The notes beneath the pieces were generated by a model. That model ran no database searches. It was not told where the DNA came from and was given only the letters and a program-made list of their open reading frames with translations. From the NCBI GenBank assembly GCA_015345905.1, contig JADDTR010000006.1, positions 186,001 to 250,000 on the forward strand: DNA of 64,000 nt. The letters are read 5' to 3'. The position numbers and the translations under genes were made by a program. The stretch's first letter is position 1. Every line of letters starts with the position of its first letter. Source of the DNA: Aotearoamyces nothofagi. Its lineage: Eukaryota; Ascomycota; Leotiomycetes; Leotiales; Tympanidaceae. Shown in pieces: positions 41,227 through 63,731 of the stretch.

Positions 41227-44060
41227 TTACATGATAACGCATCCGATCCCATACATAGCCCTCTCCACATCCCTCTTGACTTGAAACCAATCTGCACGTC
41301 TCTCCGCGAATTCATAGACTTCTTCGGCCCTAAATATGCCATGAAACCTATCTCCGTCCGCAATGATGGTGGCCATTTCCTTCGCATGAGATGGATCGAT
41401 GAGATAAATTTGTGACAGCTCCCGTAGAGCTTTGAAATACTCCAAAAGGTCCTGATTCCTTAACATCTGTATGTATTTAAAGTATAGGTTCATGTCGCTG
41501 ATGAGCTTAATCGCCCCATCCGTACTGATCCGTTGGCGCTTTAAATGCTTGCATAAAGCTGCGAAAAGGCGCAGACCAACTTCTTGATTGAACACATCGA
41601 GCATATTCTTGTCAGTACTACCTGTAAGCATTTTGGTATGCGATGAGACGAGATCAACAACCTGCTCTGCAGCTTTGGTTGGGCCAATATCGAACTCTTG
41701 TTGTTTGCCATTTATAGCCGGTGGAGGATTGTAGTCTGAAACAAGTTGTGTAGTAGCGCAGACATATTCCACCTCGTCCATGAGAACATCGATTCCCTTG
41801 TTTAAGCCAGCCGCGACCCGCTCATCTAGCATTTGCTCAAATTTTTTCTTGGCTTTAACAGCTGGATCGAGGAAGTCATTCTTGTCGGCTAGCTTGGTGG
41901 CAGCTAGCTGTTGTTCGTAGAAGACATCTATCATCTGGGATATCAAGTCACCCACATTGACGAGCTCCAAGAATGTCACTAAAGGGGCCACTCCTTGTTG
42001 ACTATGCTCGCTAACTTCTCGAGGGTTATATTTTGAGAGATGGTCGACAGCTTTGTCAAATCCACTCTTAACATGCCTTGTTCCAAGAATCTGAAGAAGC
42101 ACAACAAAGATCATTTCGCATTGCTCCCGAGCTTCTTCGCCAGTCTGACCACCTAGCCGCACAAAACGAGCTGCACGCTCGAGACTAGTCTTGGCCGAAT
42201 GGACCAAAGTTAAGGCGACTTCGATACTGAATAATGACCTGATCCCTTCTAGTCGTGACGCCATGATGGCAGCCTTTGCAGCAAGTTCATCTGTCGGTGC
42301 TTGTGCAATTGCTGGAGATGACGTCCGAGACTGTCCTAAGCTGGATAAAGCTGGTGTAAGCGGTCTCGACGGTGCTGATGACAGAGATGCACTTGAATCA
42401 ATGCTAACTTGTAATGTAGCGGCTGGCTTAGCCGTAGCGAATGGCGAAGAGATAGGTAGACTAGGAAGCACATTCACAGGCATCATTACAACCTTCTTGA
42501 ACGAACTCAAAAAGTCCTTCTTGTCAGCTTGCCGATTGACGTTCGCCATGAAGAACGACTCGGTTGACGCGTCCTCCTCAAAGAGCTTCTGCTCCCAGCT
42601 ACTGACCTTAGCCTCTGCTTCCCGTTTGAAATAGTCCAGCTCATCTTGTAGATACAGGTCGACATGCGGTTCAAAAACTCTCGCTAAAATGTCGTTCAGT
42701 TTGACTCTAAAATCTTCCCCAGACCCTTTAATAGGGGTCAGTGAGTTCGCAAATTGAATGGTCTGTTCAAATATTCCCGAAACAGCCTTAAGATATGACG
42801 GTATACTTCTTTCATGTGCCTCATCGAAAAGGGGAGTGACATACTCTCCAATAATATCCTCGCCGACCTTCTCGAGGAAGACTTCTAAAACATTCTGTGA
42901 AGGTGGAAAAACTCGCTCTATGATAGCGGCCTGTTCGTTGATGCTCTTTGACAGACCGCTGAAGAACTGGCTGGAAGGTTCAAGCACTATATCTCCAGCT
43001 GATGCTTGATTTATGCAGTCCATGGCATTCCCGAGACTGGTTCTCTCTGAGAAAATTGGGTTTTTCTGCACGAAGAGTTCCACGCCTGCTTGTCCCCCAT
43101 TTAAAACTTCCAGGACATGAGCATATCTGTGCATTCTGCCGTCAATATCCCAAGCCTCGTATCCTTGTTCGAACTCCCGCAATACAGCGTTCTCAAATAT
43201 ACCGACCATAGTATTGAGTTTCTCTTCTCGTTGTCGCCATCCTTGTGCCCAATCACTTCGTGAAAATGTCTGTAGTTGAGCTAACATTTGTGCCTGTTGC
43301 TCTGGTTCACGGTAGACCCGAAATATAACAGGGTCTGTGTGGCTTTTAGAACGGGCAAGGTCGAGGTAGAAAGGCGCCAAAGCGGCATATATGCGCCCAT
43401 ACTCCTGGCGAGCAGACCCACGAACCGATTTTACGCTTGATAGTACTGCCAGTATTGCGGCAGGGTCCTGTAATGATGCTCTCTTTGGTGAAGTACCATT
43501 CGTTACCGGTGGAGCTGAAAGCGTTAATGTTTCAAATCCGTCAGCAACGCTGCTTTTTACAGTGCGTGTAGGAGTATATGATGCCCGACTCTGTCGCTCC
43601 TCCTCGATGCCTGCATCAAACAACGTTGTACTTGTTTTCCGCAAGCCTCCAGTTCCATTTACACCAATGCCCGCCCTTTTGGCCTCTTCCGCCAGTTTGG
43701 CCTTCTGTGCCTCCCACTTTCTCCTCATGGCCTCTTCAAAACGCGCCCGAGCTTCGGACTCATTCCAGCATCCCATTGATCGCAGTCTTTGTACCCACCT
43801 TGTATCGTCGTACACCATTTCCTGCATGCGTTTAGACGTCTGAGCGAAGCGCATCAATTCAGGTATGGGAAGAAAGTCGAGGATTGTCGCAATGATTTCT
43901 AATATCCTTTATTACGGTACTCAGTAGATAATACCACCAATTACTCACCAGCTGGAAGCACAGACTTGCTCTCTAACATCGATGTTTCCTTCAGGGAATT
44001 CAGGACTTTCTTCAGGGCATCTCCGCCATGAGGAGCAGATGCCCTCTTGAAATTAGACAT
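41227..44060 (-). CDS. rcy1: Recyclin-1 (F-box and Sec10-like protein), two exons, CaaX end
   Basis: Minus-strand exons 44060-43949 and 43898-41227 give 927 residues. Rcy1 is an F-box protein needed for recycling of SNAREs and membrane proteins from endosomes and is linked to Skp1 and Ypt31/32. The F-box (EIIATILDFLPIPELMRFAQ, residues about 38-85) spans the exon junction. A Sec10/exocyst-like helical region takes up the rest (SEHSQQGVAPLVTFLELVNVGDLI is one typical block, given here in part: GVAPLVTFLELVNVG). The C-terminus CVIM is a CaaX box for farnesylation, as in yeast Rcy1. Start at MSNFKR: the frame upstream lacks another ATG. Its stop lies 223 nt from the convergent KIN28 stop. Confidence 0.93.
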
Positions 44061-57826: not shown

Positions 57827-60608
57827 ATGCCGTGCTTTTCAGACTCCTTTTGGTCAGCGGACTATGCTGGAGGTAAGAATTCGAATCACACACTGTCTTG
57901 TAGATACTAACATCTGCCCTGAAGGCTTGGGGGTCCTATTTGGGAAGCTCCAACAAGGTGTGGCCGAAAACCAGCAGATCCTCACAATTGCGCGAATGCG
58001 AGCAGAGGCGGAAGATATCTATGGATTGCGCCTCGGTGAGATAGGACCTGCCACGGACAAGATAACCGGTGGCTTCTCTAGAGATGATGGCGCTAGCGTG
58101 CGAAAGGTAGGTCAAGTATTCGCTGGAAAGCTGGATATGGCTGATATTGTTGTTAGGCATACGATGGTGTGCGCAGTGAGATGGAAGAAGCATCGAAAAC
58201 CCATAGGAAGATTGCATCAAGCATCCGCGAACTCGTGGTCAATCCTTTTACCAGATGGTGCGACGCTCATGAATCACGAGTACAAAACTCCCAGGACGAA
58301 CTACAAGCGCGCATCAAGCATCATGATAAACAAGCAGATACTGTGGGAAAGCTACGGAGCCACTACTTCAACAAATGCCGGCTCGTGGAAGACATCGAAG
58401 AGGAGAACAAGCTTGGATTCCAAGATCCTTCGGCCACCGAAAGTCCTAAGCAGAAGCAGAAGCCAATCATCCCCGAGATCAAAGTCCAAGCGAAGGACGA
58501 CGACGAAGAGGAAGAAGAGCCCCTGGAAATCGCCGACGAAGTCTACCAACCAGAACAAGTCAAGAAGATTCTGACCCATATGCTGCAAACCATAAGGCTG
58601 ACCGAGACAAAAGTTCCGATCTTGGGGACCTACTTGAACACTTCCGCAGGATCCGATATTGTGGAATATGTGCAAAAGCATTTAGGAGCAACAAGTGTTA
58701 GTCATGCTGAACGTATTGGCCAAGATCTTGTTTCGTACGGATTCTTGCGCCTTGTCGGAAATGTCGGCAACACTTTCGCGAACAGTTCTAAGATGTTCTA
58801 CCAATGGCGACCTAAGACATTCCAACTAACTGGAATCCCAGAGAAGAAGCAAGCACTAGGCCGATCCTTCTCTCTATCAACCGGCGCTGACTTTTCAGAA
58901 TCTCCCGTTGGAGCAGTTGGTGACTACCTCTCAGGTTGGAATCCCTTGAATAATCAACATCCCAATGAAACGCCAGCCGAACGTCTACGTCGCGAGGCCT
59001 CGGAGGCAGACCTGCGATATAAGGCGGCAGTGCGGAAGCTTGATTTACTCCGATGCCAGCTCGAAGAGGCTATAATTGAGCACCTAAAGTTTATGGAACG
59101 GTGTGAGCTCGACAGACTCAAGGCTATTAAGGCTGTTATCCTGGATTTCTCTGGGGCAATCAGCAATGTTATTCCTAGCTTGCAATCTACGGTCGATAAG
59201 ATGATGCTCTATCAAGAGACGGTACAACCACTAGGAGACTTACGATATCTCCTTGAAAACTACCGTACTGGCGGATTTGCACCCAAAGTAAAAATCTACG
59301 AGAATTATTATAACTCGGCCGATGAGCAAACATTTGGCGTAGACCTTGAAGCAAGAGCTCGAGCCGATAAAAAAAGAGTACCGAACGTAGTCACTACAAT
59401 ACTCACTTTCCTCGACAACCACTATCCTGATATGGAGGGCGATGATGCTCGACGAGGTGTGTGGCTCGTAGATGTACCTCTATCTGTGACCCACCGACTC
59501 AGACACGAAATCAATACCGGCAAGCCGGTTTCTACTGAAACTTTAGAGCGTTACGAAATACCCATTGTTGCAAGCGTACTCAAACTTTACTTGTTAGAAC
59601 TTCCTGGTATGTCTTCATTATGCTATCGATCGATAGCAAAACTAACCAATTTTAGACTCCCTGGTCTCTTCTCACGTATATGAAATAATTAAGACTATCT
59701 ACTCTACGCCGGCTTCCGAGTCGACAGATTCTGCAAGAATTTCCGTTCTACAGAACACTTTGATACAGCTACGACTAGTCAATATTGCCACGCTCGATGC
59801 TCTCATGACCCATTTTACGCGCCTTATAGAGCTCACGTCTGCCGACGAAACCTACGTGGCTGCGCTTGCCCACAACATTTCCCCTTGTATCTTACGACCC
59901 CGTACGGAGAATTCCATGACCATGGAAGAGAAGCACTCTTACCGGCTCATCCGGGATCTCTTTACCCACAAAGACACCATTTTTGGTGAGCTCAAGCGTG
60001 CTAGCTCACTTACACACAGTATCAGTGTGGACAACCGACCGCGTGCTATAAGCTCTGATGAAAGCAATCGCAAAGCTAATATGGAAGCTCGGACTCGTGC
60101 GATCCTTGCTGCGGGTGGCTCACGTAGCCGAGCTACGAGTCCTGCTCCAAGCCCGCGTGGTCACCGACGGGATCGAAGCAGTGGCGGGCCGGAAACAAGA
60201 TTCCCAGTTCAGACATCTCCTACTAGTACCACTGGCTCTGGCCCCAGAACCTCTCGAAGTTCGCTCGGGAGCGTCGTGAACAGGAACAGCCTTGATGTTC
60301 CAGGCGTCAGTGACATAAGCCCCGTAACTGACGGCGGCAATGTAACCAACGGCACGCTGCAGAATATTGCAAATGGAGCCGGCGAACACCCAATATCAGC
60401 CACAGACGTTGTGGTTGATGAGCTTGGCGTGGAGAAGCGAAACAGCCTTGGAAGATCGACTCATGCTGGTGCAGGACGACTTGCACAGGCGAGGAGGCCA
60501 CCGGGAGCTGGACTAGTAAAGCAAAGTGTGGGAAGCATCGCTAAGACAGAAATACCAGAAAGCAGGCCCGTCGGCGTGAGCCTGACTGATAAGCCTATGG
60601 ACGACTGA
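57827..60608 (+). CDS. rgd2: Rho GTPase-activating protein Rgd2 type (F-BAR, DEP, RhoGAP), four exons
   Basis: Exons 57827-57872, 57925-58106, 58157-59606 and 59656-60608 give 876 residues. Rgd2 links membrane curvature to Rho/Cdc42 signalling. Order: F-BAR first half (FSDSFWSADYAGGLGVLFGK; SSIRELVVNPFTRWCDAHES) to about residue 150; acidic linker; DEP domain about 212-291 (KVPILGTYLNTSAGSDIVEY, YGFLRLVGNVGNTF); F-BAR second half about 355-440; RhoGAP from about 469 (FGVDLEARA, VPNVVTTILTFLDNHYPDME) to about 650; then a Ser/Arg/Gly-rich disordered tail. A DEP domain inserted within the F-BAR is the Rgd2 layout. At the place of the usual arginine finger (FRxSG) the sequence reads GVWLVDVPLS, so Arg is not where expected. 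Confidence 0.91.
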
Positions 60609-62655: not shown

Positions 62656-63731
62656 ATGTTGAACCTTCAGCGTATCGTAGTCTCAGTACTACTCGTTCTT
62701 ACAGCTACTTTCCTCTTCTTCGCTCAGACAACCAGCGCTGCTAAAGGCCCAAAGATCACTAACAGGGTTTACTTTGACATTGAACATGGTGACGAGTTTC
62801 TCGGTCGCATTGTGATTGGTCTCTATGGCAAAACTGTTCCAAAGACTACAGAGAATTTCCGTGCTTTGGCTACTGGTGAAAAGGAGTTTGGTTTCGAGGG
62901 CTCTTCATTCCACCGTGTCATTAAGAACTTCATGATCCAGGGAGGTGACTTTACCAAGGGCGATGGCACTGGAGGAAAGTCGAGTACGTCTAAAATCCTC
63001 TAGATAGTTGGTTGATAGGTTACTAACACCTTTAGTCTATGGCGCGAAATTCCCAGATGAGAACTTCAAGTTGAAGCACACCAAGACCGGCCTACTCAGC
63101 ATGGCCAATTCTGGCAAAGATACGAACGGCTCTCAATTCTTCATTACTACCGCAATCACCAGGTAAGAATTGATACCATTTGTGACAAAAGTTCGTGACT
63201 AATTAAATACAGCTGGCTCGACGGCAAGCACGTTGTTTTCGGCGAAGTCCTCGAAGGCTACGAGATTGTCCAGAAAATCGAAAATGTTCCCAAAGCACCA
63301 GGAGATAAGCCTCTAAAGGCTGTCAAGATCGTCAAGAGCGGTGAATTAGAGGTGCCAGAAGAAGGTATTCAAAAGGAACTATAAAGTACCATTCTCCTTT
63401 CTTCACATAATTGGTGCTGTTCGAACTTGCTGATTCGTCTGTGTCCTTGACAGATGTTTACGGCGGCTCCGAATTCGTACCGGGCACGGAAGAAGAAAGC
63501 GACAGCGACAGCGATATCAAGGAGCCTGCAACGTCTCCCGATTCAAGTGCTCCAGCAATTCCCACTCCTGCAGCATCTGCGAAGACCGAAAGCTCTGCGA
63601 CTTCAGAGGGATTGAGCATATTACAAAAGGTGCTTTTCTTGGCCGTTATTTCTGGATGTGTTGCGGCTTATCTCCGCTTGAATAGAGTGAGGGAAGAAGA
63701 TGTACAAGGATATGAGAAAAGTTTAGCTTGA
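62656..63731 (+). CDS. cypB: Secretory-pathway cyclophilin (peptidyl-prolyl isomerase B) with two possible C-termini
   Basis: Exons 62656-62983, 63036-63162 and 63213-63364 or 63213-63384. The first residues ([20 protein letters not shown], then TTSA) are a signal peptide. The cyclophilin domain has [35 protein letters not shown] and [13 protein letters not shown], keeping the catalytic Arg and Trp. Keeping the last intron ends the protein at 63384 with EGIQKEL (208 residues). Removing it (63365-63453, donor GTATTC, acceptor GACAG) joins exon 63454-63731 and gives 294 residues with a Ser/Asp/Pro linker and a membrane segment [18 protein letters not shown]. Both forms stay in frame. The role is protein folding in the ER; the long form would be membrane-anchored. 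Confidence 0.9.

What the first reader, a model, noticed from the sequence alone, without database searches (positions are those of the whole stretch)
63213..63731. Cyclophilin with intron-controlled choice between soluble and membrane-anchored forms
The last intron (89 nt) has a weak donor, G|GTATTC. Retaining it ends the protein with GIQKEL, close to ER-retrieval tails of the HDEL/HEEL kind (I recall Aspergillus nidulans CypB ending in HEEL). Removing it replaces that tail with an acidic Ser/Pro linker and a transmembrane helix followed by a basic/charged end. Both products are in frame and complete. One gene could thus supply lumenal and membrane-bound isomerase.
Basis: partly seen in the sequence, partly recalled or inferred. 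Interest (0 to 1): 0.75.

Follow-up and report, generated by a model that had tools for sequence, protein, structure and literature searches.

The report
Fungal ER cyclophilin with switchable tail
A fungal protein-folding enzyme gene can be read in two ways at its end, giving the usual soluble form if the last intron is kept or a probably membrane-anchored form if it is removed; whether the cell uses both is not known.

Summary
A cyclophilin B-type gene lies at 62656-63731 (+); its last intron (63365-63453, donor GTATTC) spans a stop codon. Kept, it gives 208 aa (22.8 kDa) ending GIQKEL. Removed, it gives 294 aa (31.7 kDa) with an acidic Ser/Pro linker, one hydrophobic segment and a charged tail.

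The interpretation needs turning round. In a published survey the ER cyclophilin of all four Pezizomycotina tabulated weighs 22.6-23.4 kDa, the size of the intron-kept form, so that form is probably ancestral and the membrane exon the addition. The -EL end is unlikely to be chance (43 of 10,552 read-throughs), but QKEL fits KDEL-receptor rules poorly. Exon 4 looks coding and has no Met of its own; the anchor is only moderately hydrophobic.

No fungal genome or RNA data were available, so neither conservation nor use of both isoforms was tested. Best reading (0.45): one gene, two C-termini, both made. Rivals: always spliced, relic tail (0.27); short form only (0.22). Splicing that switches C-terminal targeting is known in fungi for peroxisomal enzymes; I found no report of this lumen/membrane pairing in the searches I ran.

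The parts
62656..62983 (+). Exon 1: N-terminal hydrophobic signal sequence and start of cyclophilin domain
   Evidence: translation; N-terminal 19-residue hydropathy maximum 2.2; coding score +11.9 in frame
62984..63035 (+). Intron 1 (52 nt), GTACGT..TAG
63036..63162 (+). Exon 2
   Evidence: coding score +4.2 in frame
63163..63212 (+). Intron 2 (50 nt), GTAAGA..CAG
63213..63364 (+). Exon 3: end of cyclophilin domain ([10 protein letters not shown]) through SGELEVPEE
   Evidence: coding score +10.9 in frame
63365..63453 (+). Intron 3 (89 nt), weak donor GTATTC, branch-like TGCTGAT with its A at 63433 (20 nt before the intron end), acceptor GACAG
63365..63384 (+). If intron 3 is kept: last codons GIQKEL then TAA (the Gly codon begins at 63364)
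   Evidence: -EL ends in 43 of 10,552 comparable read-throughs
63454..63731 (+). Exon 4: acidic Ser/Thr/Pro linker, hydrophobic segment [21 protein letters not shown], charged tail, TGA
   Evidence: Coding score +8.1 in frame against -20.7 and -17.2 in the other forward frames; hydropathy 2.0 over 19 residues; no Met in frame
63341..63342 (+). Alternative in-frame donor GTGAAT (113-nt intron to the same acceptor)

Best explanation
One cyclophilin B gene gives two C-termini by optional removal of its last intron. Left in, the mRNA ends with the codons that make the ordinary short fungal ER cyclophilin, a soluble lumenal enzyme. Removed, the stop codon goes with the intron and a fourth exon adds a linker, a single membrane segment and a charged cytosolic tail, giving a type I membrane-anchored ER isomerase. 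The donor is weak because the same bases must also spell the short form's Gly-Ile end, so splicing is partial. Shown: the two reading frames, the splice signals, the coding character of exon 4, and the size match of the short form to published fungal ER cyclophilins. Inferred: that both mRNAs are made in useful amounts, the membrane topology, the reason for the weak donor, and any regulation.
For: Gene and both products. Identity: Pfam PF00160; [quoted passage not shown] The short form's 22.8 kDa lies among the ER cyclophilins of A. nidulans 23.4, A. fumigatus 23.0, G. zeae 22.6 and N. crassa 22.6 kDa (PMC1618848 Tables 1, 2, 9, 11). The -EL end occurs in 43 of 10,552 GT read-throughs. Exon 4: in-frame score +8.1, reached by 0.23% of 65,396 overlapping windows outside 13 predicted genes; 92 open codons in a given frame in 0.22% of 20,000 simulated stretches; 4 of 5,000 amino-acid shuffles of exon 4 reach its hydropathy maximum; no Met in frame, so it is not a separate ATG-started gene. 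Weak donor: third lowest of 21. In fungi, alternative splicing is reported to make peroxisomal isoforms of glycolytic enzymes (PMC4207609 passages).
Against: No transcript evidence. QKEL lacks the basic residue at -4 and the acidic one at -3 that the KDEL receptor uses. The anchor is only moderately hydrophobic: 13 of the other 142 open frames of at least 92 codons in the window carry a segment as hydrophobic, and a rough insertion energy of my own is slightly positive, +0.6. Among 3,466 non-gene windows that are open, 4.1% reach exon 4's coding score. No unusual RNA structure around intron 3 (z -0.40; introns 1 and 2 0.08 and -0.67). With no donor weighting my gene finder did not report this gene above its cutoff; with weighting it scored 16 against a cutoff of 15. 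Five promoter motifs tried in the 700 nt upstream gave only one CCAAT. None of the 14 tabulated fungal ER cyclophilins of this group has the long form's mass.
Confidence: 0.45

Rival explanations
1. Intron 3 is an ordinary constitutive intron. The gene makes only the membrane-anchored form, and GIQKEL is a decayed relic of an ancestral retrieval tail.
For: Good acceptor and branch-like site; the full three-intron model is the one my gene finder chooses when donors are weighted; QKEL is off-consensus as a retrieval signal, as expected of a decaying relic.
Against: Donor lacks G at +5 and T at +6 and ranks third lowest of 21. The 14 tabulated fungal masses are those of the short form. The -EL end is still present.
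Confidence: 0.27
2. The short soluble form is the only meaningful product. Intron 3 is spliced rarely or never, and exon 4 is a fortuitous open frame in the 3' region.
For: Short form matches all four Pezizomycotina in the survey; weak donor; a stop-spanning intron into 92 or more open codons arises at about 2% of frames by chance (11 of 538); moderate hydrophobicity.
Against: Exon 4 scores as coding in the one frame that splicing would join, and 92 open codons in a given frame is a 0.22% event in simulated flanking sequence.
Confidence: 0.22
3. The gene model is wrong in another way, for example exon 4 joined through the 63341 donor, or a sequencing or assembly error at the end of exon 3.
For: Donor 63341 (GTGAAT) scores higher than 63365 on my weights (0.6 against -1.0) and keeps the frame.
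Against: It would delete eight residues next to the end of the domain for no visible gain. Sequence error was not tested.
Confidence: 0.06

Closest known systems
Fungal cyclophilin B (Pemberton Group G; A. niger CYPB with HEEL)
   Same: Signal sequence, single cyclophilin domain, ER; the intron-kept form has the same mass and a short tail ending -EL
   Different: Tail is QKEL rather than HEEL (HEEL from a paper title only); the gene has a further in-frame exon with a hydrophobic segment
Saccharomycotina Cpr4-type cyclophilins (Group H)
   Same: ScCpr4 is an ER cyclophilin with a putative transmembrane domain (PMC1618848 passage)
   Different: Group H was found only in Saccharomycotina, as separate genes; here the hydrophobic segment is an optional exon of a cyclophilin B gene
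Fungal peroxisomal isoforms made by alternative splicing or stop-codon readthrough (Freitag 2012, title seen; PMC4207609, passages)
   Same: One gene, a C-terminal targeting signal chosen at the end of the coding region
   Different: There a peroxisomal signal is added; here an ER-lumen end would be swapped for a membrane anchor. No expression evidence here

Membership tests
Fungal cyclophilin B (Group G) | Cyclophilin-type PPIase domain | tested here: met
   PF00160 E 1.9e-49; stretches [24 protein letters not shown] and [10 protein letters not shown] present; their catalytic role is recalled
Fungal cyclophilin B (Group G) | N-terminal ER signal peptide | tested here: met
   By hydropathy only: 19-residue maximum 2.2 in residues 1-40; no dedicated signal-peptide predictor run
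Fungal cyclophilin B (Group G) | Closest to B-type rather than A-type cyclophilins | tested here: met
   three of the top five PDB rows are named isomerase B; the other two bear no type in their name. Chains named A score lower. No tree built
Fungal cyclophilin B (Group G) | About 22-25 kDa, PPIase domain only | tested here: inconclusive
   Short form 22.8 kDa fits, long form 31.7 kDa does not
KDEL/HDEL-type retrieval signal | Basic residue at -4, acidic at -3, Glu-Leu with free carboxyl | tested here: not met
   QKEL: Gln at -4, Lys at -3, against the rules in PMC8248988 passages; only the final EL fits. Fungal receptor preference not tested
Type I single-pass membrane protein | Cleavable signal plus one membrane helix with positive cytosolic flank | tested here: inconclusive
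   Hydropathy 2.0 over 19 residues; 4 K/R in the 15 residues after the core but also 4 D/E; rough insertion energy +0.6
Cpr4-type cyclophilin (Group H) | Belongs to the Saccharomycotina Group H clade | not tested
   No fungal sequences held; the survey limits this group to Saccharomycotina
Alternative-splicing dual targeting in fungi | Both mRNA isoforms expressed and differently localised | not testable with these tools
   No RNA or localisation data

The most novel reading that the evidence does not exclude
Across filamentous ascomycetes the last codons of the short cyclophilin B double as a deliberately weak splice donor, so that the ratio of lumenal to membrane-anchored isomerase is set by the efficiency of one intron and shifts with ER load. 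The soluble tail and the anchor would be two ends of one conserved switch that gene annotation has recorded as only one or the other.
Probability: 0.25. Interest if true: 0.65.

Novelty: new variant of a known kind. Interest (0 to 1): 0.42.

Why it matters
If both forms are made, one gene supplies a free and a membrane-tethered folding catalyst in the ER, and a splice donor is held weak by the codons it must also encode. That would let the effect of tethering an isomerase be tested by changing splicing alone. It would also mean that fungal cyclophilin B gene models need checking for a missed exon.

Tried and rejected
Own genome: none held. I read the C-termini of 12 of the 80: uninterrupted bacterial-type frames, none with a hydrophobic extension like exon 4, nothing of use for conservation. 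I did not scan metagenome contigs, whose cap is 0.

RNA structure around intron 3 is no more stable than shuffles (68 of 200 fold as well). Exon 4 has no convincing relative in PDB sequences (best E 0.16) or Pfam (T4SS_CagC at E 0.15, below cut-off). Promoter motifs for a UPR link: five patterns, only one CCAAT at -30. The bacterial promoter/terminator scan and the bacterial-code tRNA scan, no genes found, say nothing on this question. NCBIfam gave two bacterial PPIase models far below their cut-offs. A first translation was in the wrong frame and is ignored.

Considered and set aside: exon 4 as a separate gene (no Met in frame); the hydrophobic segment as strong evidence by itself (14 of 143 open frames of at least 92 codons have one, this one included).

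Literature: ten searches. Those aimed at a fungal cyclophilin with alternative splicing or a membrane form were 5, 7, 15, 16, 28, 42, 49; they listed 0 of 0, 20 of 32, 15 of 178, 1 of 1, 12 of 102, 15 of 43 and 8 of 8 papers, and no listed title or abstract start reports it. One search was partly wasted: one term was read as a literal phrase. What I saw of papers: PMC1618848, passages, outline and both parts of section 24 (tables); PMC8248988, PMC4207609, PMC8192932, PMC7914984, PMC8643696, PMC9118705, PMC13170295 and PMC2219887, passages only; PMC13084196, outline, abstract and two passages; PMC10575979, one reference-list passage; PMC4399147 and PMC2447506, term search without hits. Derkx and Madrid 2001 and Freitag 2012: titles in reference lists only. 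Recalled and unverified: that the UniProt entry Q7S7Z6 of N. crassa is about 285 residues, which would make its automatic model a long form.

Full report
What is there. The + strand at 62656-63731 carries a cyclophilin gene with three introns. [quoted passage not shown] 60 of 161 matches shown). Residues 1-40 hold a strongly hydrophobic stretch (19-residue maximum 2.2), as expected of an ER signal sequence. The ten other long frames that I scanned match EH/DUF1720, Adaptin_N, SMAP, Eisosome1, Sec10, SNF2, ULD_2, RING, DEP and RhoGAP, consistent with an ascomycete (recalled distributions); the species is unknown.

The two ends. Intron 3 (63365-63453) is 89 nt, not a multiple of three, and contains a TAA in the frame of exon 3. 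Kept, the protein is 208 aa (22.8 kDa, pI 8.6) ending [15 protein letters not shown]. Removed, it is 294 aa (31.7 kDa, pI 5.3).

Is intron 3 real? It has a good acceptor and a branch-like TGCTGAT whose A is 20 nt before the intron end. Its donor GTATTC is weak: third lowest of 21 introns that a small gene finder of mine placed in the window, on weights set by hand from the recalled fungal consensus; the two lower ones may be mispredictions. A donor 24 nt upstream (63341, GTGAAT) is also in frame and would give the same long end minus eight residues.

Is exon 4 real? Its in-frame coding score is +8.1, against -20.7 and -17.2 in the other two forward frames and -23.5, -23.6 and -6.8 in reverse. 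0.23% of 65,396 overlapping windows outside 13 predicted genes reach it; among the 3,466 of those that are open, 4.1% do. 193 stretches of the training genes themselves average 14.4 (sd 6.5), a yardstick biased upward because the model was trained on them; exon 4 lies at their 14.5th percentile. Ninety-two open codons in one given frame occur in 0.22% of 20,000 simulated stretches. As a harsher control I looked for stop-spanning introns with equal or better signals that open at least 92 more codons: 16 of 538 frames have one, of which five share a donor with an independently predicted intron, leaving 11 of 538, about 2% (this gene itself was outside that test because it lies within 700 nt of the window end). 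Exon 4 has no Met, so it is not a separate ATG-started gene. 4 of 5,000 shuffles of its residues reach its hydropathy maximum of 2.0. Against open frames in general, however, the hydrophobic segment is weak evidence: 14 of 143 open frames of at least 92 codons, coding or not and this one included, have one as hydrophobic, and 7 of 143 have it ending in the last 40 residues. Its rough insertion energy by my approximation is +0.6. A membrane anchor is likely but not secure.

Is the short end real? Of 10,552 GT read-throughs of 4-30 residues in the window, 43 end in EL and 15 in [HKRQ]xEL; none matches [KRHQSA][DENQ]EL, a stricter pattern that I recall, and GIQKEL does not match it either. More telling, the published tables of fungal PPIases give the ER cyclophilin of all four Pezizomycotina surveyed as 22.6-23.4 kDa, 'PPIase only' (A. 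nidulans, A. fumigatus, G. zeae, N. crassa; PMC1618848). A. nidulans Cyp6 is named as a Group G member in the text; for the other three I took the one cyclophilin with a signal sequence and ER prediction in each table. The Group G members of the ten other tabulated species, as named in the text, lie between 21.8 and 25.4 kDa; S. cerevisiae and S. pombe are not tabulated there. None of these 14 is near 31.7 kDa. The ER cyclophilin of Penicillium oxalicum is named PoxCYP23 (PMC8192932 passage). A. niger CYPB is described in a paper title as containing the retention signal HEEL. So the intron-kept form here is the size of the ordinary fungal protein, with a tail of a similar kind. The masses are calculated from gene models, not measured. 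The N. crassa entry is marked as manually re-annotated, so the database model then differed from the 22.6-kDa protein; this is a lead, not a test.

Against the retrieval reading. Structural work and modelling on the KDEL receptor show a basic residue at -4 pairing with E117 and carboxylates at -2 and -3 engaging the pocket (PMC8248988 passages). QKEL has Gln at -4 and Lys at -3. That paper works with chicken and human receptors and notes that some yeasts use ADEL or DDEL, so a fungal receptor might differ; but on present rules this is a poor signal. The short form may be retrieved weakly, be secreted, or carry a decayed tail.

How it most likely works. The bases G|GTATTC must serve both as codons for Gly-Ile in the short form and as a splice donor. 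That double duty would explain a donor without G at +5 and T at +6, and would make splicing partial (inference). Kept: the ordinary soluble enzyme. Spliced: an enzyme tethered to the ER membrane. The kept mRNA has no later intron in this model, so decay triggered by a downstream junction is not expected (inference). I give 0.45 that both are made in useful amounts, 0.27 that splicing is constitutive and the tail a relic, 0.22 that only the short form matters, and 0.06 for other errors of the model.

Known or new. Alternative splicing and readthrough that make peroxisomal isoforms are reported in fungi (PMC4207609 passages). An ER cyclophilin with a putative transmembrane domain is known as Cpr4 in budding yeast (PMC1618848 passage). 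A recent abstract proposes that human cyclophilin B's role may be defined by a membrane anchor, there N-terminal (PMC13084196). The combination here would be a new variant of a known kind. In the searches aimed at it, whose listings were in part cut short, I saw no report of it; that library lacks most subscription papers.

What could not be done.

Noticed in passing
41230-43908 (-): Sec10-like exocyst helical-bundle protein with an N-terminal F-box match just above one Pfam cut-off (21.7 against 20.5) and just below another (23.3 against 24.3).
   Followed up: no
63341: Second in-frame donor 24 nt upstream of the intron-3 donor, scoring higher on hand-set weights.
   Followed up: partly
L001, L005, L007, L008, L010: Streptomyces cyclophilins close to this eukaryotic protein (best-segment identity 53-66%).
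   Followed up: no
58157-60605 (+): Overlapping open frames with DEP and RhoGAP domains joined by a predicted intron, probably one DEP-RhoGAP gene.
   Followed up: no
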